From NCBI RefSeq assembly GCF_001583435.1, contig NZ_CP013251.1:311501-375500 (forward strand): a stretch of 64,000 nucleotides of DNA. The letters are read 5' to 3'. The stretch's first letter is position 1. Every line of letters begins with the position of its first letter. The position numbers were made by a program, and so were the translations under genes. The stretch is from Endozoicomonas montiporae CL-33. Lineage in GTDB: Bacteria > Pseudomonadota > Gammaproteobacteria > Pseudomonadales > Endozoicomonadaceae. Shown in pieces: positions 49,618-64,000 of the stretch. The notes under the pieces are model-generated. The model was given only the letters and a program-made list of their open reading frames with translations. It was not told the DNA's origin and ran no database searches.

Positions 49618-50985
49618 ATGACAACAGATACACACTTCGACTATCTGGTAATTGGTGGCGGCAGCGGCGGCATCGGCACAGCCAACCGCGCCGCAATGTA
49701 CGGTGCAAAAGTGGGATTGATTGAGGCTAAACACCTCGGCGGTACCTGTGTGAATGTTGGTTGTGTGCCTAAAAAAGCGATGTGGTTTGCGGGGCAAATC
49801 TCTGATGCTGTGAAGTATGGCCCGGACTATGGTTTTGATCTGGACCATGAGGCAGTACTTAAAAGCTTCAGCTGGAATAAGCTGGTTGAAAGCCGCGAAG
49901 CTTATATCGGACGTATTCATCAGTCCTATGACCGGGTTTTGGGTAACAACAAAGTTACTGTTATTAACGGCTATGGTCGTTTTGTTGATGCCAGAACCGT
50001 TGAAGTGAATGGCGTACAGTACACAGCTGATCACATTACCATTGCAACCGGCGGTGAACCTGCCATCCCGCAGATTCCCGGAGCTGAATACGGTATTGAC
50101 TCCGATGGCTTCTTCGATTTGACAGAACGACCAGAGCGGGTTGCTGTACTGGGGGCAGGTTATATTGCAGTAGAGCTGGCTGGTGTACTTCATGCACTGG
50201 GTAGTGAAACGCATCTGCTAGTTCGCAAGCACAAGCCATTGCGCAGTTTTGATGACATGCTGTCCGACACGCTGGTTGAAATTATGGCTGCAGAAGGCCC
50301 TGCACTGCATACTCATTCTGTGCCAAAAGAAATTACCAAAGAAAACGACGGTAGCCTCACAGTACATCTGGAAAATGGTAACAGTCTGAATGTAGACACT
50401 GTGATCTGGGCTGTAGGGCGCAAACCTCATACTCACAGCATTAATCTGGAAGCGACGGGTGTTGAAACCGACCAGCGCGGTTACATTCCTGTGGATAAGT
50501 TTCAGAATACCAACGTACCGAACATTTATGCCGTAGGTGACAACATTGGCAAGATAGAACTGACACCTGTTGCTGTTGCTGCTGGCCGTCGGTTGTCTGA
50601 ACGTCTGTTTAATAACAAACCGGAAGAACATCTGAATTATGACAATGTTGCCACGGTTGTCTTCAGTCACCCAACCATAGGAACCGTTGGCTTAACGGAA
50701 AAAGAAGCCGTTGAGCGTTATGGTGCTGAGAATATCAAAGTGTATAACAGTGGTTTTACCGCCATGTTCTCTGCTTTGACCAGTCATCGACAGCCAAGCA
50801 AAATGAAGCTCGTTACCGTTGGTGAAGAAGAGAAAATTGTGGGTATACACAGCATTGGTCATGGCTCCGATGAAATGCTGCAGGGTTTCGCTGTTGCGTT
50901 GAAGATGGGGGCCACCAAGGCCGACTTTGATAACACAGTTGCTATTCACCCCACTTCGGCAGAAGAATTTGTCACTATGAGATAG
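49618..50985 (+). CDS. gor: Glutathione-disulfide reductase
   Basis: Gor reduces glutathione disulfide with NADPH. 455 residues: FAD motif [18 protein letters not shown], redox disulfide [13 protein letters not shown] (Cys44, Cys49), second nucleotide site [17 protein letters not shown] with [12 protein letters not shown] (the Arg residues select NADPH), FAD-binding IYAVGDN, and the C-terminal catalytic [12 protein letters not shown]. The ATG at 49618 has GGGAG 8 nt upstream. A Tn7-like element begins immediately after its stop, so the 3' end of gor is a candidate attachment site. Confidence 0.95.
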
Positions 50986-50989
50986 TGAT

Positions 50990-51059
50990 AAAATTGGAGA
51001 ATCATAAAAGTTTTGACAACTATTAATAGTTTCGACAACTCATAATAATTTTGGCAACT
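50990..51059. repeat. End repeats of the Tn7-like element (probable TnsB sites)
   Basis: AGTTTTGACAACT (51009), AGTTTCGACAACT (51028) and AATTTTGGCAACT (51047) occur at an exact 19-bp period. A degenerate fourth unit may lie at 50990 (AAAATTGGAGAAT), which would put the transposon end right at the gor stop codon (50983-50985). Tandem sites of this kind at the tnsA-side end are typical TnsB-binding sites. The partner end is outside the window. Confidence 0.75.
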
Positions 51060-51066
51060 TTGCCTA

Positions 51067-51124
51067 CCATGATCCATACTCTCAAAGTCGTAGATTTACA
51101 CGACTTTGAGAGTATGGATCATGG
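51067..51124 (+). promoter_or_regulatory. Perfect 25-bp inverted repeat over the tnsA start
   Basis: Arms 51067-51091 and 51100-51124 are exact reverse complements with an 8-nt loop (AGATTTAC). The right arm contains the probable ribosome site (GAGAG) and the tnsA ATG at 51121. As RNA it would hide the start of tnsA in transcripts entering from gor. As DNA it could be an operator. Confidence 0.7.
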
Positions 51125-51987
51125 CTATTGACCTTAAGCTGATTTACGAACAGTGGCTTGCAGAAAGCGTGTCAGGGCCTTATAAAGGCTTCATAAATCA
51201 GCAAACATTCAGCTCAAATGCTACATCTACAGAGTTCTATAGCGTAAAAATGGAGCGTATGGTTTATGCTGCTTCACCGCTGGAAAGAAGACATTTCCTT
51301 ATTAACCTTGAGTTTAATGATCGGGTAACTTCATACTTTGAGCAATATGCAATTACCCCCAGCGTTAGCCTGCAGCTTGCCAAAAAATATGGATTAAGGC
51401 ACCACTTGAATGGTAAGGCTATTGTTACAGTCGATGCTTTAGTATTTTACTCTTGCGAGCAATTTGCCGAATTTCACTCAGTTAAAAGCGATGAAGATAT
51501 TCATAAGTTCATAAGCGAGGAGTTATGCGATGAAACAATGACAAGGCTTGAAGAAAAACTTCTTATTGAAAAAATGAGTAGTGAAAGATATGGAGTGTCA
51601 TGGATACCAATTCGAGATGCAGATGCGCCAAAAATTAAATTCAAAAATTTGGAAGCTCTGTATGCTGGAAATAATGCTACTAAAGAAGACAGGAAAAGAC
51701 TTTCTGATTTCTTTCTGGCTTTTTGTAAAAAGATCACTGCAATAACCAGTGATATTAGATTTGTTGATATCCAAAAAGACCTATCAAAACTCTTGGATTT
51801 ATCTCTAGATAGTATTAGGAAAATATTTTCATTATTAGCTTGGAACAAGGTAATTGAGTTTTCACTAGATGAGTTCTTAGAGCCCACCTCGATGATAAGA
51901 GTCGATACATTCAGAGTTTTTCCCGAAAGGCTTGAAAAATGCATACAGAAAGAAGCATCCAAATCGATGATGCATTACAGGTTGTAG
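51121..51987 (+). CDS. tnsA: TnsA-like transposition endonuclease
   Basis: TnsA cuts the 5' ends so that Tn7-type elements move by cut-and-paste. 288 residues. Catalytic residues align by spacing with Tn7 TnsA: Glu55 and Glu64 in SPLERRHFLINLEFNDRV, Asp105 in IVTVDALVF, Lys123 18 residues later. A winged-helix-like C-terminal domain follows. The ATG at 51121 lies in the 25-bp inverted repeat; an upstream in-frame TTG is less likely. The AT-rich base use differs from gor. tnsB begins 49 bp before its end. Confidence 0.85.
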   Translation: MAIDLKLIYEQWLAESVSGPYKGFINQQTFSSNATSTEFYSVKMERMVYAASPLERRHFLINLEFNDRVTSYFEQYAITPSVSLQLAKKYGLRHHLNGKAIVTVDALVFYSCEQFAEFHSVKSDEDIHKFISEELCDETMTRLEEKLLIEKMSSERYGVSWIPIRDADAPKIKFKNLEALYAGNNATKEDRKRLSDFFLAFCKKITAITSDIRFVDIQKDLSKLLDLSLDSIRKIFSLLAWNKVIEFSLDEFLEPTSMIRVDTFRVFPERLEKCIQKEASKSMMHYRL

Positions 51988-54182
51988 AGTCCAAGTCACT
52001 AAACTCTGGAATGTATAGGGTTGTCCTATTAGGTGATGCTCACACTTACCTTGTAGAGATCTGTAAACGTCCAAGAAAGCTGTATAAAGTTGAGCGAGGT
52101 GATTTGTTTTCAGACATCCAGAAAGAGCGAATCAAAAAAATTGTTTATGAGACGCCATATCATCTTCTGCTGCCTGAAGAAGATATTCCAGAATCCTCAC
52201 TAAAAGAGATGAACCGGCGATATGAAATTATAAATCCTGCTATTGGTGCGATTAATGATGTGATATTGAGGAACTCGTCTGGGCAAGAACTGATAAAGGA
52301 GTGCATAAATAGATCAAAGGGAATAAGTCCTTCTGGGGAAAAAGTTAACAAAACAACTGTTTATCTTTATATATATAGGTTTTTAATGTACGGAAGGGTT
52401 GAGAGAGCATTACTTCCTGATAGATTTTTACAAGGGGCAAGGGGGAAAATAAGAACTGTAACTAAGGATACAAAAATTCGTGGCAGACCACGAAAATACA
52501 AGGAGGATATTGTAACAATAAATATCGATACTGATGCACAGGAGATAATTAAAAAAGCATATAAAAATTATTATAAAAAATTACATAGACCATCTGGTGA
52601 GTGCTGTAATGATTATGTCTCACTATTGAATGCTATTTGGTATGATAATTACATAGAATCAATTGACTCACACGGTAAAATAAAATACAAAAAGCAAAGA
52701 ATATCAGAGACTCAACTAAGGGATTGGCTACCTAAACTAATCGATAATTTTGATAAACTCGAAAGAAAAGTTGGCAGCAAAAATCTTGCTAAGGATTACA
52801 AAGAGTCTTATGGCACGATGAATGATATTGCCGATGGCCCTGCTCATGTATATGCAATTGATGCGAACACTGTAGATACTTACCTTGGTAGTGATTATGA
52901 GTATTTAAAGGAGAATACTACAGGAAAACCATTTCAATACAATGTTGTTGATGTATTTTCCGGTATGCTCACTTGGTCATCAATAGATTTTAGAGACCCA
53001 TGCCTTGCTCGCTTTATGGAAGCGCTACTTGGTGCCTTTATGAAGAAGTCGATAATGGGTGAAATATGGGGCATTGAAATTAATGATGAAGATTGGCCAT
53101 GTGAGCTCATAAGCTATGAGAATCTAGGGGATAGAGGTTCTGAATTTATTACTCCAAAAAAAAATATTATTCACGGTAGGCTTAATGTAATTGCTTCGTC
53201 TGCATGCCCAGCTTACAGACCAGATCAAAAACCTCTCGTCGAGAGTACAAATAAAATATTTAATGAAACACTTTTTCATAGATTACCTGGAGCTGTCATT
53301 AAGGCTATTGCAAGGGGAGATAAACACCCTGCAGAGATGGCTTGTATAGTCATGCCAGAGATATACAAACTTTCAGCAGAAGTGGCTTATGATATAAACC
53401 GGAGGTTATTGGATAGAAAGTACCTTACGCCTCAAATGCTTCGGGATGGAGTACGCCCACAACCAGTAGAAATATGGAAGTGGGGGCTTGAAAATTGTAA
53501 TAGTTATGGAATACCGTCAGGCAATTTTGACACCAAGTTAATGCTGATCACCTTGAGCGAACAAGTAACAATCAGAGCAAATGAAAAAGGTGTTTATACA
53601 TTGGAAGATAAAGGGCAGGACAAAATATTCTATCAGCCCGCGAATAAAGACATACAAAAATTTGTTCGCCTATATCACAATAACTTTAATAGTTCATTGA
53701 TAGCAGACTATTACACTGGCCACAGGATTGCAGGCTCAGTAAATTTTTTATACTTGATTTCAAAGAAAGATAATCAAATTACTAAATGTAGAATACATTC
53801 ACGTAGCAGAAGGCTTGTTAATATGCATATCCATCAAGTTACTTCTCAACTTGAATATGATAGGTGTGAAGATCGAGTTATTAAAAAAGAGGATGCAGAA
53901 AATAAAGCAAAAACCACCAAGGTAAGGAGGGGAATTGTAAAAGATGCATTTAAAAAGACCAAGAAAGGAAAGTCTGTCGCCAGAGCTAGAAGGAAAAACA
54001 TAAAGGAAGATAAGGATTTAGAGCAAGCGATGTTAGATCTTAAGAAAAAAACTGCATATGAAAAGATTCTTGATGAAAAAGTAAATAGTGATAAAACGGA
54101 ACAAATCAAACCCAAAGAATCGAAGAAAAAGCGTAGTGAAAATAAAGATGAATTATTTGACGATTTCATAAAAGGCATTTGA
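51939..54182 (+). CDS. tnsB: TnsB-like DDE transposase
   Basis: The 747-residue rve-fold transposase joins the 3' ends. An N-terminal DNA-binding region (about 90-190, with TVYLYIYRFLMYG and RGRPRKY) precedes the catalytic core: Asp308 (VYAIDANTVD), Asp398 (NLGDRGSEF) and Glu435 (KPLVESTNKIF), with spacings of 90 and 37 close to Tn7 TnsB. A highly charged Lys/Glu-rich tail (about 645-747) may contact TnsC. AAGG lies 8 nt before the ATG. It is in one operon with tnsA (overlap) and tnsC (1-bp gap). Confidence 0.9.
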   Translation: MHTERSIQIDDALQVVESKSLNSGMYRVVLLGDAHTYLVEICKRPRKLYKVERGDLFSDIQKERIKKIVYETPYHLLLPEEDIPESSLKEMNRRYEIINPAIGAINDVILRNSSGQELIKECINRSKGISPSGEKVNKTTVYLYIYRFLMYGRVERALLPDRFLQGARGKIRTVTKDTKIRGRPRKYKEDIVTINIDTDAQEIIKKAYKNYYKKLHRPSGECCNDYVSLLNAIWYDNYIESIDSHGKIKYKKQRISETQLRDWLPKLIDNFDKLERKVGSKNLAKDYKESYGTMNDIADGPAHVYAIDANTVDTYLGSDYEYLKENTTGKPFQYNVVDVFSGMLTWSSIDFRDPCLARFMEALLGAFMKKSIMGEIWGIEINDEDWPCELISYENLGDRGSEFITPKKNIIHGRLNVIASSACPAYRPDQKPLVESTNKIFNETLFHRLPGAVIKAIARGDKHPAEMACIVMPEIYKLSAEVAYDINRRLLDRKYLTPQMLRDGVRPQPVEIWKWGLENCNSYGIPSGNFDTKLMLITLSEQVTIRANEKGVYTLEDKGQDKIFYQPANKDIQKFVRLYHNNFNSSLIADYYTGHRIAGSVNFLYLISKKDNQITKCRIHSRSRRLVNMHIHQVTSQLEYDRCEDRVIKKEDAENKAKTTKVRRGIVKDAFKKTKKGKSVARARRKNIKEDKDLEQAMLDLKKKTAYEKILDEKVNSDKTEQIKPKESKKKRSENKDELFDDFIKGI

Positions 54183-54183
54183 T

Positions 54184-55749
54184 ATGGCTGATGAAGTAGA
54201 TATCCAGCAATATGTAAATAGACGTATTAAAAGATATATTATCGATAATCCAGAGTATAAGCCGTGCCTGAAAAGGTATTCGAACAACCCTCTCACAGAA
54301 GCACTTTATTCTGTGATTTCAAAATCAGAGAATAACCACGACTTTTCCAAGGAAGATCTATTTAAAGCTCTTGCAAAATTACCGTACCACCAAGATCGAG
54401 ATAATAATAATTTTATTAATTTGGATCAGTATACTCATAAGCAGCAATCTTTGTTATCAATGGGCTTGATGGATTGCTGTTTGCCTGACAGTGATTTATG
54501 GTTTGAAATATGGAATGAAGTAACTGACATTCTTATGGATACATACGTGTTCCGAAATCCCTTGTCAGCCGAAAATGTCAGACATCTTACCAAACTATGC
54601 CCGAAAAATAAAAAGGATAAAGATGAGTTAAAGGATAGAACTGAGTATTTGTTTACGCCAAGAGATTCTTGCTCAACTTGCACTAAGACCAGTGTTTTAA
54701 TAGGCTGCACTGGAGTCGGTAAGACTTTTATAGTTGAAAGCATTTTATCTTTAATTCCTAATGTTATCTGTCATAGAAAATATAAGGGTCAGCCCTTGCG
54801 ACTAACACAAATTCCATGGACAAAAATTGATTCTCTTCCATCCGGATCTGAAAAAGGCTGCTGTTTGCAGTATTTGGCAACACTCGACTATCTTCTTGGG
54901 AACAAAGGAAAGGATTGTTACTTCAAGGCAAGCAGTTATAACAAGAGTATTGATGTCTTGCAGCTTGAAATGGCAATAGCAACAACACTACACAATGTAG
55001 GAATGCTGGTTATTGATGATTCTGAAAACATATTAAACAACAAAGAACATCAGAGATTAACCGCTTTTTTGAGTGCTTTAGTTAACTGTGTCGGTTTATC
55101 AGTTTGGTATCTTGGAACAACAAAAATGTGGTTACTATTCACTAGCGAGAAAACAAAAGACTTTAGTGCTATAAGAAGAATTGCTACAGGATTTTACCAT
55201 GAGATAACCCGTTGCAAACCAGAAGACCAGTTTTGGAAAAAATTGGTTAAGCTCTTTTGGATTAACCTTATGGCAAACAATAAAATTGACTTGGATGACA
55301 GTGATGAAGCTGATGATGAGTCAAAATCGTATTACAAACAGATTTATGATTATACTCAGGGCATTCCGGCAATTCTGGCCAGTTTCATGCATCGCTGTAA
55401 CCGCTATCTCGTTAACAACCAAATAGATGAGATCAATGATCAGGTTCTGGAGTACGTTTACAAGTTCAAGATGACTATTATTCACGAAGGCATTGAAGCC
55501 TTGAGAGGTACAGGCCCAAATGCATTTGAGGACTTAGATTCCATTCGAGAACTTATTGAAGAAGACCAGCGAGAAGCTGCTCAATATCAGGAAACTTTTG
55601 ACAGTTCTGATACTGAAGATGCCGCATGTTCTCATTCTAAGACTGAAGACGCTTCTAAAGTTGAAACAACAGTATCCCCTGAAGATGTCTCCGATGAATT
55701 AAAAAAACTGCGTGAACTTATGACTTCGAATTTACAGAATAACGAGTAA
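54184..55749 (+). CDS. tnsC: TnsC-like AAA+ ATPase
   Basis: The 521-residue ATPase bridges target selection and the transposase. Walker A GCTGVGKTF (174-182), Walker B MLVIDDSE (274-281) and a sensor-like YLGTTK. The C-terminal 80 residues are acidic and low-complexity. It starts 1 bp after tnsB, with AAGG in the tnsB end. No TnsD/TniQ or TnsE follows; the next genes are on the other strand. Confidence 0.87.
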   Translation: MADEVDIQQYVNRRIKRYIIDNPEYKPCLKRYSNNPLTEALYSVISKSENNHDFSKEDLFKALAKLPYHQDRDNNNFINLDQYTHKQQSLLSMGLMDCCLPDSDLWFEIWNEVTDILMDTYVFRNPLSAENVRHLTKLCPKNKKDKDELKDRTEYLFTPRDSCSTCTKTSVLIGCTGVGKTFIVESILSLIPNVICHRKYKGQPLRLTQIPWTKIDSLPSGSEKGCCLQYLATLDYLLGNKGKDCYFKASSYNKSIDVLQLEMAIATTLHNVGMLVIDDSENILNNKEHQRLTAFLSALVNCVGLSVWYLGTTKMWLLFTSEKTKDFSAIRRIATGFYHEITRCKPEDQFWKKLVKLFWINLMANNKIDLDDSDEADDESKSYYKQIYDYTQGIPAILASFMHRCNRYLVNNQIDEINDQVLEYVYKFKMTIIHEGIEALRGTGPNAFEDLDSIRELIEEDQREAAQYQETFDSSDTEDAACSHSKTEDASKVETTVSPEDVSDELKKLRELMTSNLQNNE

Positions 55750-55804: not shown

Positions 55805-57199
55805 CTAATTCAGATTCTTTGGAATGGTTTTCTTCAATTCACTCCATTGAAAACGAACTGGTCGTGTTTTCTTGACTAGAATGCCTTCTTCGACTGCACG
55901 CATCAGCCACTCTTTGACTTGGCTATTATGCAGCCCAAGAGATTGAGATATTTCATCAGGTGCGATAGGGGTACTGCACAAAGAATGCAGATGCTTCAGA
56001 AAGAAGTCATAAAGAGGCTCCAGATCTGGCTCTCTACATGCAGTCAAATCTGCGTCTGCAACGACTTCGTCCTGAATCTTTGGAGCAGCTTTTGCTTTAC
56101 TGTCATTAGCTGCCTGTATACCTTCCTGTTCGGGAAGATTAGGCTGGCTCTCCCCGACTTCACTACCTACCGTAGAGACAGAAGAATATGACTCTAGTTC
56201 CTTATTCTGTGAAACAGACCTTTCTTCCGCTCCCCACAAGTCCAGAGTTGGAGCCTGTGTCGGTTGTAATCGATGTTTGATAAACAGGTCAGTTACAACA
56301 ACCTCATCAATACTGTTGTTACACCAGTGAGCGCCCTGATTAACGATGTCTGCATTTCCTGCAGCTCTGTCTTCAGTCGGCTTAACCCACAATGGAACCC
56401 AGTCTTTTTTCAGGTTCTCCAGAGCACCGCTCCATGTACCGCCTTTAATACCGGAATGCACTACCAGTGCTCCATCAGCTATGCAATAGACATACTTATT
56501 GCGGGCCATGGCATTACCCGCATTAAAGCCAGCTTCAGGATAAAACGGAGAGATCAGAACCAAGTTGTTACTGGCAAGGTGGCTACGCCATTTTTTAGCC
56601 ATTGCTGCTTTCAGCAGGCTGTCTGCCATTACACCGATTGAAGTTCCATGTGCGTTCACAGCTCCCAGCATTGAGGTTTCATCAACACCTCTGGCTCCAC
56701 CGGAAACAATACAGATACCATTGGAAGCACACTTGGCTCCAACAGCATCAGTGAACGCCAAATCAACTGGTGAAGCGTTTCTGGAACCCACTACAGCCAG
56801 GCCACCCTGATTGAGAAGGTCTTGATTACCTACCCCAAAAAACAGAGGAGGAGCTAAAGTACCCAGCCGTGCTTTTAGCCGCTTCGGGTAGCAATCGTCG
56901 GAGCGAGTAATCACCCAGACACCCGCTCTCTGCCACTTTTCCAGAGCAAGCGCCATGGCATTACCACGTTCAAGCAATGCCTTAATGCGCTCAAAGGTAA
57001 TGTTTTTGTCCTGCCAGCTTGCCAGTAGTTTAGAGAGGTTCTTTTGCAATAGTTGGGCAGGTGAGAGCTTCTGGTCTTTCAGCCATAACGCAAAGCGCCC
57101 CCACTCCGTGGGGGTCAAAGGTTTTACAGCTCCTCTTTCAGGCTTTGAGAAGTATGTGTTGAGCAGCAAAATTGCCTGTGTATTTTCTGAAAAACTCAT
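55805..57199 (-). CDS. DprA/Smf-like Rossmann protein
   Basis: 464 residues. Helical N-terminus (1-90), then the DprA core: LGTLAPPLFFGVGNQDLL, LAVVGSRNASPVD, IVSGGARGVDETSMLGAV and ISPFYPEAGFNAGNAMARN. An acidic spacer of about 80 residues and a C-terminal winged-helix (TPIAPDEISQSLGLHNSQVK) follow. DprA proteins bind single-stranded DNA and load RecA; the SMF core also occurs in phage-defence proteins. Its ATG overlaps the recQ stop (TAATG), so expression is coupled. It is longer than competence DprA. Confidence 0.82.
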   Translation of the reverse strand: MSFSENTQAILLLNTYFSKPERGAVKPLTPTEWGRFALWLKDQKLSPAQLLQKNLSKLLASWQDKNITFERIKALLERGNAMALALEKWQRAGVWVITRSDDCYPKRLKARLGTLAPPLFFGVGNQDLLNQGGLAVVGSRNASPVDLAFTDAVGAKCASNGICIVSGGARGVDETSMLGAVNAHGTSIGVMADSLLKAAMAKKWRSHLASNNLVLISPFYPEAGFNAGNAMARNKYVYCIADGALVVHSGIKGGTWSGALENLKKDWVPLWVKPTEDRAAGNADIVNQGAHWCNNSIDEVVVTDLFIKHRLQPTQAPTLDLWGAEERSVSQNKELESYSSVSTVGSEVGESQPNLPEQEGIQAANDSKAKAAPKIQDEVVADADLTACREPDLEPLYDFFLKHLHSLCSTPIAPDEISQSLGLHNSQVKEWLMRAVEEGILVKKTRPVRFQWSELKKTIPKNLN

Positions 57200-58446
57200 T
57201 AGTCACCTGTTGAGGTGGAGGCCAGTGCAACTGGATATACCTTCCCACTGCCCGCCTGCTGTAATAAGGCTGCTGCAACAGTGAAAGTCCAGCCTGAGTC
57301 CACAATATCATCAACCAGCAAAACAGGTGCTGAATAACATTCAGTGACTGCAAAAGCCCCGTCCAGATTGCGACAACGCTGATATCTGTTTTGCTGCAGC
57401 TTCTGAAGGCTATTGTCTCTGTTTTTTGCGATGGCGTCGATAAATGGAAGCCCCAATGCCTCGGCCAGTCGCCGGGCAAAGCTTGGAACCAACTCTGGGT
57501 GATTACGTGAAGGAATACAGCAAACCCATTTAGGAAACTCTTCAGGGTTCCAGCGTTCACGAATCATTTCGGCTGTAGCTGTCACCAACTCATCCCGGAA
57601 GTGACCGTCATGTTTGTCTTCAGCAACCATATAGCCCCATCCTGCATCTCCCCAGCGGGAAAGGACTCGCCCTTCCTGAGCACGCAACCCTTGAGGCAGG
57701 TTACCCCGAAAACCATATTGGGCAAATGCTCCTGCAGCAACCTGTACATTTGGTTTGATAGGCGCTTCTGCCTGCTTCAGGAAAACTGCTGCCTGATGAG
57801 CAATATCAGACTGGATTTCTGTAGCAATGATATTCTGTCCCAAACAATTAGCGCAGCAACCACAAGGTTCCCGATTGCCATCATCCAGTGCATTTCTGAG
57901 AAAAGTCATCATGCATACGTCAGTAGACATATAGTCCTGAACTTCCTGCCATTCACTTTCTCTTTGCTGAGTAAGATGGTCAATACGATCATGATCCATT
58001 GAGAACGGGTTGGTAGTTCGTTTCCAGACTCGACCATCCTTAAAGATAGGTGCAGGGTTTTCGATGCTCAGCATCTTTAGAACCTTTTCTATCTGCCCAC
58101 TGCTGACATTGGAGTGCTCTTCCAGTTCCCTGGCCGTTAAGCCATCAGAGTCATCCAGAGCATTTAGAATCTGACTAACTTCGTCTTCCGAGGGAAATGC
58201 GGAGCCACGGAAGTACTCATGAATATCTCGATCTTCCCGACCACTTAGCAGCACACCAATGGATGAAGCAATTCCACGTCCAGCCCGGCCAACCTGCTGG
58301 TAATAGGCAACAATAGAACCCGGAGCCTGGTAATGAATAACATAAGCCAGGTCAGGCTTGTCGTAGCCCATATGATGGACCCCATAAACTGGACAGGTAG
58401 CTAAGTTAAGTTTTCTGGCTGTAAGATGACCCTGCAGGAGGGAATC

Positions 58447-58731
58447 ATGACAGCAAAAAGAAAACGACATAAGCCCGAATTTAAGGCACAGGTAGCACTC
58501 GAAGCCTACAAGGGCGAAAAGACCATAAACCAGCTGGCAAGCGAACACGAAGTTGCAGCCGTTCAGGTTAGCCAGTGGAAGCGACAGCTACTCCAGGGGG
58601 TTCCAGAAGTCTTCGGCAGGGCACGGCCAGAGGTAGATCCAGATGCGCTCACTGCCCCCCTGTATCAGGAGATCGGACGGCTTAAAATGGAGCTGGACTG
58701 GTTGAAAAAAAAATCTGGCAATGTCCATTGA
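58447..58731 (+). CDS. IS3 OrfA (helix-turn-helix part)
   Basis: 94 residues beginning MTAKRKRHKPEFKAQVALEA with the HTH TINQLASEHEVAAVQVSQWK and a leucine-zipper-like end GRLKMELDWLKKK. The 9-A run near 58706 is the expected -1 frameshift site into OrfB. Confidence 0.9.
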   Translation: MTAKRKRHKPEFKAQVALEAYKGEKTINQLASEHEVAAVQVSQWKRQLLQGVPEVFGRARPEVDPDALTAPLYQEIGRLKMELDWLKKKSGNVH

Positions 58732-59554
58732 TGACAAACGGAGATGCATAGACCCGGATCACTCGAAGATCAGCATTCAGCGCCAATGTGAACTGGTTGG
58801 GTTAAGCAGGTCAAGCTGGTATTACCAAGCTTCTCCAGCTTTGGAAAGCCCTGAGAATCTGAATCTGATGAGGCTCATTGATGAGCAGTATACACGTACA
58901 CCGTTTTACGGCAGTCGTAAGATAACTGCATGGCTGAATGAGCAGGGCTTTCCGGTCAACAGGAAGCGTATACAGCGACTTATGAGGCTGATGGGCATAC
59001 AGGCTGTCGGACCAAAACCGGGCACAAGCCTGAGAAACAAAGAGCATAAGGTTTACCCGTACTTGTTGAACGGCGTTGATATTGTGAGACCCAATCAGGT
59101 CTGGAGTACTGATATTACGTACTGCCCGATGCCTCAGGGGTTTATGTATCTGGTTGCCATTATTGACTGGTACAGCCGTTACGTGGTCAGCTGGGAGCTG
59201 TCGAACACACTGGATGCAGACTTCTGTATTCATGCGCTGGGTCGAGCTTTGGAACAAGGTGAACCTGATATATTCAACACTGACCAAGGGTGTCAGTTTA
59301 CCAGTAATGATTTTCTGGCACCTCTTCAGGAACGGGAAATACGTATCAGCATGGACGGGAAAGGGCGAGCACTGGATAACATTTTTGTCGAGAGGCTGTG
59401 GCGCTCCGTCAAACATGAATGGCTGTACACGCATGAATTTCAGACTGTTCCAGAGCTTTATACTGGGCTGGATGAATACTTTGAGTTTTACAACACTGAA
59501 CGATTACACCAGTCGTTGAGTTATAAAACGCCTAAGGCAATTCACTTTGCATGA
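58721..59554 (+). CDS. IS3 OrfB (rve integrase-type transposase)
   Basis: 277 residues overlapping OrfA by 11 bp. The HTH_21 region is YTRTPFYGSRKITAWLNEQG. DDE residues lie in VWSTDITYCPM (Asp), FNTDQGCQFTSNDF (Asp) and IFVERLWRSVKHEW (Glu). Intact, so the element may still move. Confidence 0.92.
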   Translation: MSIDDKRRCIDPDHSKISIQRQCELVGLSRSSWYYQASPALESPENLNLMRLIDEQYTRTPFYGSRKITAWLNEQGFPVNRKRIQRLMRLMGIQAVGPKPGTSLRNKEHKVYPYLLNGVDIVRPNQVWSTDITYCPMPQGFMYLVAIIDWYSRYVVSWELSNTLDADFCIHALGRALEQGEPDIFNTDQGCQFTSNDFLAPLQEREIRISMDGKGRALDNIFVERLWRSVKHEWLYTHEFQTVPELYTGLDEYFEFYNTERLHQSLSYKTPKAIHFA

Positions 59555-60678
59555 GGGCTTTGGACCACTGCCAGGACTTAACTTAAATTTGTTGGTTTAC
59601 TGTCTTGACAGTGGGGTCCACCATACCATGCCTAAAGCAGTGGTAGCTACCAGTACATCCAGCTGGTTGTTCAACAGCCTGTCTTCCAAATGCTGGCGGT
59701 AACTATCACTGGTTTCAAAAGCCGGATCAGTGACGCCACTGTAATAGGCTTTGGCATTAATCCCATGTTCAACAAGCCAGCCAGCTACCTGATCAGCATC
59801 CCGTTTGGTAAGTACATAAACAATACCTGTGCCGTTCAATTGTGGAATGGTCTGGGCAAGCCAAGCAAGTCTTGATGCTTGGTCAGGCAATTCCAGTGTT
59901 TGCAAGCTCAAACCGTCTCGAATCAGGGGGCCACGCTGAACCACAATATCACCGAGCTGACTCTGAATATCATCTACCACACGGTTGTTTGCAGTTGCTG
60001 TAGTACCTAATACCGGTGTGTTGGCTGGAAGGCGCTGAAGAATATTAATAATACGACGGTAGTCTGGTCGGAAGTCATGCCCCCAGTCAGAAATACAGTG
60101 CGCTTCATCAACCACCATCAAACCGATGTTTTCAGAGATTGGCATCAGGACATTGTTGATAAAATCATCGTTAGCCAGTCGTTCAGGGGAGATCAGCAGG
60201 CAGTCAACCTGGTTGGCCAGGATTCGGTTTTTAATGGTTTCCCATTCATCCCGATTGGTTGAATTCAAAGTAACCGCCTCAACACCCAGTCTCGCTGCAG
60301 AATCAATCTGGTTGCGCATAAGAGCCAGCAGTGGTGAGATAATAATGGTCACACCTCGCCCACGGTCACGGAAGATTTTGGTGCTGATAAAGTAGACCGA
60401 GCTTTTACCCCAGCCGGTGCGCTGAACAACCAGCAGTTTCTGCCGTTGATTGACCAGAGCATTTATTGCTTCCCATTGTCCATCCCTGAACTCAGCCTCC
60501 GGGTTGTCTAGTGATGTTCTGAGCAGCTCCTGAGCCTGATTGTATTCCATACTGCCTCCATTAAGGGAGATTGGTTTTTAGAAAAGAGAGGACTTTTAGT
60601 CCTACAATTTAAAGTTATGGCAAAACTGAAAATATTTTTGATTTGATGATAAAGTTTTTTTAATTTTTCCGACTGAAC

Positions 60679-60706
60679 CTATGCTGTAGATAAAACCACA
60701 GCATAG
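60679..60706 (-). terminator. Hairpin between the UvrD-like and recQ genes
   Basis: CTATGCTGT pairs with ACAGCATAG across 10 nt, 28-55 bp past the UvrD-like stop. There is no T-run on the minus strand, so it is a weak terminator at most. The recQ promoter should lie in 60551-60678, which is AT-rich. Confidence 0.4.
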
Positions 60707-60733
60707 TTAACGCCTTATCAATCGGAATACAGG

Positions 60734-63415
60734 TCAATCTGCTGCTTTAAACTCAGATTTCATCTCTGAAACCAGACTCTCCAGCGATTCAGGCATCTCT
60801 TTCTTACACGCCAAGCCCAAGAATGTTGCAGCACGGGTAGCTCCTACATAAAGGAACTTTTCAAAAAGATCTGGTTTCTCATCAGCCAGTGCATCCACCC
60901 CCAGGAAGAACACCGCTTCAAACTCCAACCCTTTGATGTGCTGGATATCGAAAACACGGACAGAGCTGCCTTCTCCAATGGTGTTACCATTTGAGCAAGC
61001 CTCTGCCTGAAGGTTTATGTCTTCCAACAATTTATTGAGAGCATTGGCTGTGGGAACAACTTCTTCTTCAGAGTTCACCAAAACTGCTATTGTTGGCCTG
61101 CCACCTTCTGCCAGTTCATCAATTTCCTTAATTCGCTCAAAGAGCCAATCAGCCACTTCAGTTGTGTCTTGATACTGCTCAAGCAGAACAGGAGAAACAC
61201 CCTGATGATCGACATGCTCCGGAAGTGTTGCTTTCTCCTCAGCTGCCCCTCCCATTAGCTCCAGAAGCTTCCCTGCAAATGAGTTCAGCTTTTGACTCTG
61301 TCGATAAACGATATTAATCGTTTCATGGGAGATCTTTCCGGATACCCATTCGAACTCGTCTTTACTCTTTGTTCCCCAATCAGTAATTCGCTGATTGAAA
61401 TCACCACAGGCAAAGAAAGAGCCGGTGCTCAGGCTGGTCTGACGCTCCATACATGCCAGCTGTATTGGAGAAAAGTCAGTGGCCTCATCGACCAGAATCT
61501 GATTCTTAAACTGATCGGAAATAATCTTGAGGGTGGAAAACTCTTCCAGATTCATGCGTACAAAATGTTGCTGCAAAAGATCTCTGGCACAATCAAGCAT
61601 GAGCAGAATAATCAAATCCAGCTCTTGCTGACCAATATGACTGGCTTGCTGTGGAGATGAGTGATACCACTGCTCTGTTTTCAGGCAGCTCCTACGGTAA
61701 GCACGATAACTTTTCGGTACACTTGTTGTGTAACGATTTGCCAATTTCGTGAAGCGACGAAGTGCATTCTGGCTATATACAACTTTACCAATACCGAGAA
61801 GCAGCTCTTTGTCTGGTAGACGATTTCCTAGCCATTCAGCAATCTTGGCATTTTTGGTTGTCTTTCCAAATTTGCCTTTCTGGTATGTGACCCTTGCATA
61901 AGCTCTGATGAAAGAGACCAGTGCTTGCGCAGCCGCTTTCTTCGGTGTTTTTTCCAAATTCTGAGGTTCAGGCTCATCGGCATCATAAACTTCATCAGAA
62001 TCTTCATCTTCGGATGAGGCTTTGACAGTAGAGAGAAACTTTGCAAATTCACCAACCAGAGACTTCTCTTTGTTCAGAATAGAGTTAACGGCTTTGCGAA
62101 TTTCTTTTTCAGACTCTTGCTTGAGCTTATCCAGTACGGTTTTGACTTCAGCCTCAAGCATAAATATCTGGCTATAGGTTGCCATCAGAGAGCCAGAAGC
62201 CTCAACAATGCTGCTTATTTTTTCTGCCAGAGGCTTAACATCTGTGATGCTTACCTTCTTCAAAAGCTTGATGCCATCTTTGAGGTGTTTTTCTGCACTC
62301 TCCTCGTGATAAGTCCTGAATGACTCATACCAGTCTATCGCTGCTTCATTGACTTCAGGTTTCAAGTGCCCAGCATCAGTTTTGAGAATAAATCCAGATT
62401 TTTTACTGGCTGACTGCAAAATGTCCAGAACATTTCGACCAAGATCACGACTCTGGGCATCCCAAGTTTTAATATTCAGGTCAGACGCTGCAACCTGTTC
62501 CCTGCTGAAAGCCTCTTTAAGGTAATACTTCAACAAGTCAGTCGGGGTAAACATTATCCAACTGCGCTTATGGTCAGTCTCTTCACCGATTTTTGCCTTC
62601 TCTGTTTCGGTTAAGTAAGCGATATCCAGCTTTTGGCCCAAGCGCCGAATCAAAGTAGTGGTTTTACCTGTACCTGGAGGCCCTAATATCAGTAGCTGGC
62701 TATCCAGAGGCATTCGAAAGATTTCATCCTGAAACTTATCCAGAATTGGCTGGTCTCTAAGACCAATACTGGTCAGGATTTCGTGCTGAATGGAATCTCT
62801 GATGTTGTCGTCAGCATCGTCATCCAGATAATCATCGAAGAAGTCTATTTCTTCGCTTTCAACCGGTGACTTCAACAAACCTCGAAGGCTTGCTATCTGC
62901 CTGAAACCGGTATCAATGTTTTCAAAATTGCTATTTCTTGAGTCCCATTCATCACCTATCTGAGATGGATTCAAAGAAGTTCTTTCAATGACTTCAAGAT
63001 ACCTGTCTCCCTTGGGAGTATGGATGATGACTTCCTCACCAACGGGGGTTGCAGCAATCCTTCCAATAGGGGCCCTATAGTTTACCAACCGCCCCCCTGC
63101 ATTGGCTCCATAAGGGTCGATTCTGCATATAAAATAAGTTTCTTCATTTTCATCATCATCCAGTACAACCACCCTTGAAATGGCAGGCTCTCTTGTAAGC
63201 TGGCTTAATGATTCAGTCTTGCTACGATTCATATCGCTGACTGTTTGGGTTGCACCAGTTTCTGTGAATGAGTTTCTGATAATCGACTGAGAATTCAGAC
63301 CATTATCATTCTGCATTAGCTTTTGCGCAGAACTGGCGACATCATCCATTGTTGAAAGGGCGTCTGAAGCCAGTTCCTCCAAATGACCAGCAATGTCCGT
63401 TTTTACTGCTTCCAT
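60734..63415 (-). CDS. UvrD-like superfamily 1 helicase with Gre-like domain
   Basis: 893 residues. Residues about 108-145 (RLVNYRAPIGRIAATPVGEE ... GDRYLEVIE) resemble the C-terminal domain of GreA/GreB transcript-cleavage factors. The SF1A motor has Walker A GPPGTGKT (245-252), Walker B LVDEA (641-645), GDFNQR (671-676), VYRQS (703-707), QHIKGLEFEAV (825-835) and YVGATRA (856-862). A long Glu/Lys-rich helical insert (about 360-620) splits the first lobe, as in HelD-like proteins. It acts on DNA, perhaps at stalled transcription complexes (inference). Same strand as the upstream unknown gene and recQ/dprA. Confidence 0.8.
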   Translation of the reverse strand: MEAVKTDIAGHLEELASDALSTMDDVASSAQKLMQNDNGLNSQSIIRNSFTETGATQTVSDMNRSKTESLSQLTREPAISRVVVLDDDENEETYFICRIDPYGANAGGRLVNYRAPIGRIAATPVGEEVIIHTPKGDRYLEVIERTSLNPSQIGDEWDSRNSNFENIDTGFRQIASLRGLLKSPVESEEIDFFDDYLDDDADDNIRDSIQHEILTSIGLRDQPILDKFQDEIFRMPLDSQLLILGPPGTGKTTTLIRRLGQKLDIAYLTETEKAKIGEETDHKRSWIMFTPTDLLKYYLKEAFSREQVAASDLNIKTWDAQSRDLGRNVLDILQSASKKSGFILKTDAGHLKPEVNEAAIDWYESFRTYHEESAEKHLKDGIKLLKKVSITDVKPLAEKISSIVEASGSLMATYSQIFMLEAEVKTVLDKLKQESEKEIRKAVNSILNKEKSLVGEFAKFLSTVKASSEDEDSDEVYDADEPEPQNLEKTPKKAAAQALVSFIRAYARVTYQKGKFGKTTKNAKIAEWLGNRLPDKELLLGIGKVVYSQNALRRFTKLANRYTTSVPKSYRAYRRSCLKTEQWYHSSPQQASHIGQQELDLIILLMLDCARDLLQQHFVRMNLEEFSTLKIISDQFKNQILVDEATDFSPIQLACMERQTSLSTGSFFACGDFNQRITDWGTKSKDEFEWVSGKISHETINIVYRQSQKLNSFAGKLLELMGGAAEEKATLPEHVDHQGVSPVLLEQYQDTTEVADWLFERIKEIDELAEGGRPTIAVLVNSEEEVVPTANALNKLLEDINLQAEACSNGNTIGEGSSVRVFDIQHIKGLEFEAVFFLGVDALADEKPDLFEKFLYVGATRAATFLGLACKKEMPESLESLVSEMKSEFKAAD

Positions 63416-63482
63416 ATAACACCGTATCCTATATTCTAACTAGCTTGGATTCCCCCTCCATCCAAAGAGAGAGGGCTTAAAA

Positions 63483-64000
63483 TTATTGTTTCGACTCAAC
63501 AGCCTCAAGCTCATCCAGAGGCTTCACCCATTCCTCATAGGGAAATTTTTCTTTGATCTGCTTCTGGAACTCTGGCTCTTTCAGCATTTCATAAGTTACA
63601 TCTTTATAGGTGCAATGTAGCCTTGTTTTATCAAGGAGCTTGTCTGCAGAAGGTGCGCTTTTCATCAGCATGTCGAGCAGGTATTGCTTGGCAGTTTCTT
63701 TTGTGACCTTACTGCATCGCGCTTGTAGCGACTGAGGCGGTTTGTCTAAGACTATTGGAGACAGCTCTTCTGCCAGTCCTTCAAGTGACTTTTCAATACT
63801 GGACTTAATAGTGGCTCTAGAGCTGTTACAGTAATCGTTTAACCTGGTTCGCAAGCCTTTAACCTTTTCATCGAACTCAGCTCTCCGGGTTTTAAGTACA
63901 ACCCTGCCTAATCGCTTGCCCAGGTTGGGGGCATAATCGTTTCTTAGCTGCTGATATTCACTGCGGAGCTTTTTGAATTCTTTAAGTTCTATGTCTTCAA
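63483..64000 (-). CDS. Unknown charged helical protein, 5' end beyond window
   Basis: The frame is open from the right edge to a TAA at 63483. Visible sequence is Lys/Glu/Arg-rich and probably coiled-coil (EFKKLRSEYQQLRNDY, RAEFDEKVKGLRTRLNDYCN), ending FPYEEWVKPLDELEAVESKQ. No family recognised. It precedes the UvrD-like helicase by 67 bp on the same strand, so it is probably part of the same cargo module. Confidence 0.6.
   Translation of the reverse strand, partial: EDIELKEFKKLRSEYQQLRNDYAPNLGKRLGRVVLKTRRAEFDEKVKGLRTRLNDYCNSSRATIKSSIEKSLEGLAEELSPIVLDKPPQSLQARCSKVTKETAKQYLLDMLMKSAPSADKLLDKTRLHCTYKDVTYEMLKEPEFQKQIKEKFPYEEWVKPLDELEAVESKQ

What the first reader, a model, noticed from the sequence alone, without database searches (positions are those of the whole stretch)
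55805..64000. Candidate undescribed defence or DNA-processing module: Gre-UvrD helicase, RecQ-PRTase, DprA-like protein
Inside a Tn7-like element, a minus-strand gene set combines a charged coiled-coil protein, an SF1 helicase with a GreA/B-like domain, a RecQ helicase fused to a ComF-like phosphoribosyltransferase, and an extended DprA-like protein with coupled start (TAATG). Tn7-like cargo is often defensive, and helicase plus DNA-sensor sets are common in defence. I do not recognise this combination as a named system.
Basis: partly seen in the sequence, partly recalled or inferred. Interest (0 to 1): 0.8.

Follow-up and report, generated by a model that had tools for sequence, protein, structure and literature searches.

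The report
PsyrTA beside an ARMADA-like operon
The suspected new defence module turns out to be two neighbouring, already named phage-defence units carried by one CRISPR-equipped jumping element; the unusual part is a helicase that recurs as an extra in several different defence systems.

Summary
The genes are real, but they are not one module. The recQ-PRTase/dprA pair is PsyrTA (also RqlHI), a named toxin-antitoxin/defence pair: PADLOC PsyrA 1.8e-161, PsyrT 6.5e-150 and 2.2e-155 for its two halves. A full-length IS3-family copy splits psyrT.

The UvrD-Gre helicase and the coiled-coil protein are the last two genes of a six-gene operon that runs past the window edge: YprA-like helicase, BrxHII/DrmD-like helicase, PglX-like methylase, SMC-like ATPase, coiled-coil protein, UvrD-Gre. 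Its first three genes have the content and order published for ARMADA Type I (2025 preprint). No PsyrTA match was found in 93 other UvrD-Gre loci.

Both units are cargo of one Tn7-like element of about 35.6 kb whose right end carries Cas5c-Cas8c-Cas7, six CRISPR repeats and tniQ: the anatomy of a type I-C CAST.

What I did not find in print: UvrD-Gre, a HelD-related motor with a weak Gre-like domain, recurs in ARMADA-like, type III R-M, BREX type 1 and Ssp loci (44 of 90 scored; 46 not assigned), in BREX between brxC and pglX. It may be an accessory subunit traded between systems. Structure prediction could not be run.

The parts
51005..51061 (+). Left-end repeats of the Tn7-like element: three 19-bp direct repeats (putative TnsB sites); inverted copies at 86494 and 86552 in window numbering, outside the window
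   Evidence: the exact outer ends were not fixed
51106..51987 (+). TnsA-like endonuclease
   Evidence: Pfam Tn7_TnsA-like_N 9.8e-7
51939..54182 (+). Putative TnsB (747 aa), named from place and size
   Evidence: ORF; no useful family match
54184..55749 (+). TnsC/TniB-like AAA ATPase
   Evidence: Pfam AAA_22 1.1e-6, TniB 3.1e-4, the latter below cut-off
55805..57199 (-). PsyrA (RqlI-like), DprA-family partner of PsyrT
   Evidence: PADLOC PsyrA 1.8e-161; Pfam DNA_processg_A 2.3e-40
57199..58375 (-). PsyrT (RqlH-like), C-terminal piece: end of the helicase and the phosphoribosyltransferase domain
   Evidence: PADLOC PsyrT 2.2e-155, profile 303-688 of 689; Pfam Pribosyltran 1.5e-4, below cut-off
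58376..59620 (+). IS3-family insertion sequence with two transposase frames, splitting psyrT
   Evidence: HTH_Tnp_1 1.5e-8 and rve 5.9e-23; 21 full-span copies in the genome
59621..60550 (-). PsyrT, N-terminal piece: first part of the RecQ-type helicase
   Evidence: PADLOC PsyrT 6.5e-150, profile 2-304 of 689; Pfam DEAD 8.3e-25
60734..63415 (-). UvrD-Gre: HelD-related SF1 motor with a weak GreA/GreB C-terminal-like domain; last gene of the ARMADA-like operon
63483..64000 (-). C-terminal part of a 414-aa coiled-coil protein that continues to 64727 outside the window
   Evidence: no family match for the whole protein

Best explanation
The stretch is the junction of two separate, known kinds of defence unit inside one type I-C CRISPR-associated Tn7-like element. 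Unit 1 (55805-60550) is PsyrTA/RqlHI. By analogy with published RqlHI (not shown here), PsyrA binds PsyrT and restrains its toxic phosphoribosyltransferase domain, and infection or DNA stress is thought to release it. Here an IS3 copy splits psyrT, so this copy is probably inactive as a toxin (inference). Unit 2 is an ARMADA Type I-like operon reading from 79684 (outside the window) down to 60734. Inferred action: the PglX-like enzyme marks self DNA, and the YprA- and BrxHII-type helicases with a Vsr-like nuclease attack unmarked DNA. UvrD-Gre is an accessory motor related to HelD. I propose, as a hypothesis only, that it docks on RNA polymerase through its Gre-like domain and strips it from, or guides the system to, transcribed invader DNA.
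For: PsyrA and both PsyrT pieces match the PADLOC models over nearly their whole length. Published RqlHI has the same anatomy and action: operon, physical interaction, PRTase-dependent genotoxicity. In 7 of the 9 loci fetched for long PsyrT matches, PsyrA follows PsyrT, and the pair occurs in 2 of 9 other genomes of the genus, where UvrD-Gre is in 0 of 9. The upstream operon has the YprA-BrxHII-PglX order of ARMADA Type I, and the YprA-like protein has a C-terminal DUF559 match, a nuclease-like domain. The same order with UvrD-Gre downstream is seen in all 8 loci with enough sequence, the own one included. 0 of 93 other UvrD-Gre loci hold PsyrT or PsyrA. Both units lie between the inverted end repeats with Cas5c, Cas8c, Cas7, repeats and TniQ.
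Against: ARMADA clade membership was not tested by a tree, and the best PADLOC model for the SNF2 protein is one called DpdE (4.9e-224). The SMC-like and coiled-coil genes and UvrD-Gre are not part of the published Type I core. The 183-bp gap before psyrT holds a weak terminator-like hairpin, but no promoter-like site was found on the minus strand, so separate transcription is not shown. The Gre-like domain passes E<=0.01 in only 5 of 53 members. Many UvrD-Gre loci are short, so the 0 of 93 is a statement about the DNA held.
Confidence: 0.83

Rival explanations
1. One reading: UvrD-Gre, the coiled-coil protein, the RecQ-PRTase and the DprA-like protein form one undescribed defence module.
For: Same strand and close neighbours, 183 bp between UvrD-Gre and psyrT, inside one element.
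Against: 0 of 93 other UvrD-Gre loci hold PsyrT or PsyrA. Among 369 class genomes, UvrD-Gre is in 4 and, in the listed rows, long PsyrT matches are in 9 besides the own one: only the own genome is in both sets. PsyrTA without UvrD-Gre is found in the same genus.
Confidence: 0.04
2. UvrD-Gre is a self-sufficient defence gene or a passenger of defence islands, not a subunit of the operons it lies in.
For: 46 of 90 scored loci were not assigned to any of the four systems; it stands without an evident partner operon on plasmids such as L007, L010 and L011, and its label moves between systems on the tree.
Against: In BREX loci it is directly after brxC in 10 of the 11 that show brxC and directly before pglX in 12 of 12; it is downstream of PglX in all 10 ARMADA-like loci. 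System labels are clustered on the tree: 10 changes against a shuffled mean of 22.9, as low in 0 of 200.
Confidence: 0.25
3. The pair is an ordinary RecQ helicase plus a core DprA competence/repair protein.
For: Both belong to families with core members.
Against: The PsyrTA models match nearly full length, while the generic dprA model stays below cut-off, 93.7 against 191 bits. The recQ model also stays below (60.5 and 197.1 against 640), though each piece is only part of a gene. The genome has another RecQ-type match at C1:3688901-3689902. PsyrA is absent at E<=1e-30 from 7 of 9 other genomes of the genus.
Confidence: 0.02
4. UvrD-Gre is the ArmD helicase of ARMADA Type II.
For: [quoted passage not shown]
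Against: ArmD carries an N-terminal RelE-like domain and has Walker A K266 and Walker B D454; here the N-terminus is Gre-like and the motifs are at K251 and D643. The gene order here is that of Type I. ArmD's sequence was not compared directly.
Confidence: 0.05

Closest known systems
PsyrTA / RqlHI
   Same: RecQ-type helicase with C-terminal PRTase, followed directly by a DprA-family partner; near full-length model matches
   Different: Here psyrT is split by an IS3 copy and the pair is cargo of a Tn7-like element. An insertion between helicase and PRTase parts of rqlH is also published for Shigella sonnei 53G (PMC4670107, section 15)
ARMADA Type I (PMC12458937, preprint 2025)
   Same: YprA-like helicase with C-terminal nuclease-like domain, BrxHII-like helicase, PglX-like methylase, in that order
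   Different: Extra SMC-like ATPase, coiled-coil protein and UvrD-Gre downstream; clade not tested
ARMADA Type II
   Same: Has a UvrD-family helicase beside the three shared proteins
   Different: Other gene order; its helicase has a RelE-like N-terminus and other motif spacing
HelD, RNA polymerase recycling factor
   Same: Nearest solved relatives of the UvrD-Gre profile: 6yxu 9.7e-12, 6wvk 3.1e-9
   Different: NCBIfam HelD match is 46.9 bits against a cut-off of 419; Gre-like domain near the N-terminus; sits in defence operons
Type I-C CRISPR-associated transposons
   Same: TnsABC-like genes, TniQ, Cas5c-Cas8c-Cas7, short CRISPR array, inverted end repeats
   Different: No convincing spacer match in the 110-kb neighbourhood, so the homing mode is unknown. 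That I-C CASTs were reported from metagenomes is recalled, from no call

Membership tests
PsyrTA / RqlHI | RecQ-type helicase fused to a C-terminal phosphoribosyltransferase | tested here: met
   Both pieces match PsyrT, profile 2-304 and 303-688 of 689; the gene is interrupted by an IS
PsyrTA / RqlHI | DprA-family partner encoded directly downstream | tested here: met
   PsyrA 1.8e-161, TAATG overlap
PsyrTA / RqlHI | PRPP-pocket DIVD residues of the PRTase | tested here: met
   DIVD is present in the C-terminal piece (translation); the motif is that mutated in RqlH (section 11)
PsyrTA / RqlHI | Toxin neutralised by the partner; phage defence | not testable with these tools
   Needs bench work
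ARMADA Type I | YprA-like helicase with C-terminal Vsr-type nuclease | tested here: met
   DruE-family match 2.6e-105, DEAD, MZB and C-terminal DUF559, 21.1 against 20.6 bits; that DUF559 is Vsr-like is recalled
[quoted passage not shown]
   DrmD/BrxH-type 962 aa and DrmMI/Eco57I-type 1556 aa, order
ARMADA Type I | Place of the YprA protein in the Type I clade | not tested
   No reference tree was built
[quoted passage not shown]
   YprA comes first; the helicase N-terminus is Gre-like by profile comparison
DISARM class 1 | Helicase and DUF1998 part in two genes (DrmA, DrmB) with a PLD nuclease DrmC | tested here: not met
   Helicase and zinc-binding part are in one 1762-aa protein; no DrmB or DrmC match was listed for the neighbours, although lists for three proteins were cut at 25
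HelD | Curated HelD model score | tested here: not met
   46.9 bits against 419
HelD | Binding and recycling of RNA polymerase | not testable with these tools
   Structure prediction could not be run either (13 attempts, queue full)
Type I-C CAST | TnsABC, TniQ, Cas5c-Cas8c-Cas7 and a CRISPR array between paired ends | tested here: met
   Cas8c and Cas7 are just under their curated cut-offs (201.2 against 218.65; 181 against 182.25); TnsB is named by place. No ORF of cas3 size between 79.7 and 86.5 kb other than those named; cas1, cas2 and cas3 were not searched for by model
Type I-C CAST | RNA-guided transposition | not testable with these tools
   No convincing protospacer near the element

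The most novel reading that the evidence does not exclude
UvrD-Gre is an undescribed accessory motor of modification-based immunity. It is traded among ARMADA, BREX type 1, type III restriction-modification and Ssp/phosphorothioation systems, and uses a Gre-like domain to engage RNA polymerase, so that these systems act on, or are cleared from, transcribed DNA.
Probability: 0.4. Interest if true: 0.68.

Novelty: new member of a known kind. Interest (0 to 1): 0.38.

Why it matters
As a module claim the finding closes: the pair is PsyrTA and the rest is the end of an ARMADA-like operon, so no new system needs testing under this title. Two things remain useful. One mobile element combines a Cas-equipped transposition machinery with two named kinds of defence unit. 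And one helicase family sits inside several different modification-based defence operons, in BREX at a fixed place. If it is a true subunit, it points to a step shared by BREX, ARMADA and type III R-M that has not been assigned, perhaps the handling of RNA polymerase on the DNA under attack.

Tried and rejected
Rejected: one four-gene module; core competence/repair genes; ArmD identity (no direct alignment); DISARM class 1 or HelD membership.

Led nowhere: the search for related loci with the single UvrD-Gre protein found no relative, an alignment query did (149 relatives, best 80 kept). A search for element ends by target duplication gave nothing convincing; the end repeats did, but exact ends are not fixed. 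None of six spacer candidates matched the 110-kb neighbourhood at 10 or fewer mismatches; ignoring every sixth base gave one match with 8 mismatches, not convincing; the whole genome was not searched with them. The PDB profile search with four homologues of the coiled-coil protein gave apolipoprotein helices and one weak other match, taken as helical composition. The first PsyrT C-piece query, was out of frame (26 stops) and was repeated in frame. A PsyrT translation printed at the end was out of frame and not used. Script labels such as PLD414 were guesses of mine; the 414-aa protein has no family match.

Limits: the paper library holds open-licence PMC papers. Searches with UvrD, BREX and related words and ARMADA showed no description of UvrD-Gre in what I saw: passages of PMC12839542, PMC10952713 and PMC8649781, and the abstract, passages and one section of PMC12458937. 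Supplements were not open to me. Sberro et al. 2013 and the report of I-C CASTs from metagenomes are known to me by citation or recall only.
Full report
What is there. The window is C1:311501-375500 of a single-contig genome of 5.43 Mb. On the minus strand lie a DprA-like gene (55805-57199), a RecQ-PRTase gene in two pieces around an IS3-family element (58376-59620), an 893-aa SF1 helicase (60734-63415) and the end of a coiled-coil protein (63483 to the window edge). The IS gives 25 match rows in the genome: 21 span its whole length, 11 of these with the top score (the one in psyrT included), and 4 are partial. The interruption is therefore probably recent (inference).

The pair is PsyrTA. PADLOC's PsyrA model matches the DprA-like protein at 1.8e-161, and its PsyrT model matches the two RecQ-PRTase pieces at 6.5e-150 (profile 2-304) and 2.2e-155 (profile 303-688 of 689). 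The generic dprA model stays below its cut-off (93.7 against 191 bits); recQ also does (60.5 and 197.1 against 640), but each piece is only part of a gene. The E. coli pair RqlHI is published as an operon whose proteins interact, with PRTase-dependent genotoxicity held in check by RqlI (PMC4670107: abstract, outline, sections 11 and 15, and passages). A 2022 paper names shosTA, syrTA and rqlHI together as systems with DprA-like antitoxins (PMC9122126, passages). Among 369 class genomes 236 match the PsyrT model at E<=1e-60, and 9 of 14 control genomes ring; most listed matches end between about 340 and 445 of 689 and look like ordinary RecQ helicases. In the listed rows, a cut list, matches reaching position 624 or beyond occur in nine genomes besides this one. 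PsyrA follows in 7 of the 9 loci fetched for these, L104 and L106 being more distant; L105 and L108, without it, are short.

The helicase belongs to another operon. Beyond the window edge the minus strand continues with the rest of the coiled-coil protein (414 aa), an SMC-like ATPase (656 aa), a methylase (1556 aa), a SNF2 helicase (962 aa) and a YprA-like helicase (1762 aa). Going upward from UvrD-Gre the gaps are 67, 102, 17, 16 and 2 bp, while the gap from UvrD-Gre down to psyrT is 183 bp. That gap holds one terminator-like hairpin on the minus strand (0.3 expected) and no minus-strand promoter-like site, so separate transcription is suggested at best. Family scans give a DruE-type DEAD helicase with MZB and a C-terminal DUF559; a DrmD/BrxH-type helicase whose best single PADLOC model is called DpdE (4.9e-224); a DrmMI/Eco57I methylase; a weak LmuB match (5.1e-8); and nothing for the 414-aa protein. 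A 2025 preprint (PMC12458937: abstract, outline, passages and section 8) describes ARMADA Type I as YprA homologue first, then BrxHII-like helicase, then PglX-like methylase, with a Vsr-type nuclease at the YprA C-terminus. The operon fits in content and order. The clade was not tested.

Are the two units linked? tblastn of PsyrA and both PsyrT pieces against 93 UvrD-Gre loci other than the own one (80 from genome contigs, 10 from plasmids, 3 from genomes; several are short) found no match at E<=1e-3. UvrD-Gre occurs in 4 of 369 class genomes; of the genomes with long PsyrT matches in the listed rows, only the own one is among them. In the genus, PsyrA is in 2 of 9 other genomes with PsyrT beside it and UvrD-Gre in 0 of 9. 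The two units look like neighbours by shared transport.

UvrD-Gre as a recurring accessory. I clustered the genes around UvrD-Gre in 91 loci (own, 10 plasmid, 80 genome-contig) by all-against-all BLAST; 90 could be scored, as L014 gave no such ORF. By marker genes anywhere in the locus, 10 are ARMADA-like, 17 type III R-M, 12 BREX type 1, 5 Ssp/phosphorothioation, and 46 none of these. In some, such as L098, the marker genes are kilobases away. PADLOC scans of representatives gave BrxA, BrxC, PglX, PglZ and BrxL (L024), type III methylase and restriction enzyme (L005) and SspC (L008); the other loci rest on BLAST clustering with these. In BREX loci UvrD-Gre is directly after brxC in 10 of the 11 that show brxC (two genes lie between in L048) and directly before pglX in 12 of 12. 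In ARMADA-like loci the order YprA-BrxHII-PglX with UvrD-Gre downstream holds in all 8 with enough sequence (own, L012, L036, L060, L062, L071, L084, L099); in L020 and L028 the held DNA begins in the methylase. For the 46 unassigned loci, 98 of 131 selected neighbours, from 34 loci, were scanned; the rest were dropped for the residue limit, mostly the last loci of the list. 218 PADLOC families match at 1e-15; the 25 shown include DISARM and BREX proteins, each in at most 3 members. That output counts families, not loci, so it does not say how many of the 46 are defence loci. A quick tree of 88 members shows the four labels clustered (10 changes, shuffled mean 22.9, as low in 0 of 200) but moved several times (6, 3, 5 and 3 changes for B, C, A and D), most BREX members lying among type III R-M members. 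It is a quick tree with several long branches, the own protein among them. The 80 loci are the best of 149 by similarity to this protein, so proportions are not population estimates, and no matched control of random helicases was run.

What UvrD-Gre may do. Walker and UvrD motifs are invariant in the alignments. All 53 members scanned match UvrD models, but only 5 of 53 match GreA_GreB at E<=0.01, the window's own at 21.3 bits against a cut-off of 26.9. A profile comparison of residues 62-165 with 11 GreA/GreB proteins (from 12 loci of the genus and one relative of the order; one gave no protein) gives probability 85.8 and E 5.4e-6 for this single comparison; three other segments of the family give probabilities of 0.4 or less. 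The nearest solved relatives are HelD proteins (9.7e-12 and 3.1e-9), then UvrD (2.2e-7). From this I infer, and have not shown, an RNA-polymerase-linked motor.

The carrier. Three 19-bp repeats at 51005-51061 have inverted copies at 86494 and 86552 in window numbering, and a 30-bp sequence is shared in inverted orientation at the two ends. Near the right end are Cas5c (2.3e-31, above cut-off), Cas8c (2.7e-59) and Cas7 (3.1e-53), both just under their cut-offs, six 34-bp repeats at 66-bp spacing with a degenerate last one, and TniQ (2.3e-10). This is the anatomy of a type I-C CAST. Two of 9 relatives have a TnsA-like gene just after gor, 47-48% identical over 159 and 75 residues, but no TnsB, TnsC, Cas or TniQ match in the 20 kb after gor of one of them and too little DNA in the other.

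Verdict. The named finding is two known kinds of unit side by side. What deserves a second look is the UvrD-Gre family; I found no description of it in the searches made, with the limits told under Tried and rejected.

Noticed in passing
Own genome C1 about 362505-398068 (window numbering 51005-86568; L002, L003): The Tn7-like element is a type I-C CAST-like element: Cas5c, Cas8c and Cas7 at L003 11072-14315, TniQ at L003 15060-15974, inverted end repeats, with two defence units as cargo.
   Followed up: partly
L003 14466-14829 (window numbering 84966-85329): Six 34-bp CRISPR repeats at 66-bp spacing with a degenerate last repeat; no convincing match of the spacers in the surrounding 110 kb.
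   Followed up: partly
gor 3' end, window 50985-51061; L158 1576-2046; L154 3038-3259: Two other genomes of the genus carry a TnsA-like gene just after gor, so this may be a preferred insertion site of related elements.
   Followed up: partly
window 51067-51124: A perfect 25-bp inverted repeat with an 8-base loop just before and into tnsA; a similar stretch lies at the right end.
   Followed up: no
Own genome, e.g. C1:369876-371120 (window 58376-59620): The IS3-family element is present in 21 full-span copies, 11 of them with the same top score: a recent burst.
   Followed up: yes
L024, L031-L034, L039, L041-L043, L047, L048: BREX type 1 loci of diverse Proteobacteria with a UvrD-Gre gene between brxC and pglX.
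   Followed up: partly
L003 9679-10371: A 230-aa protein between the ARMADA-like operon and the Cas genes has no family match; a relative lies in L040.
   Followed up: no
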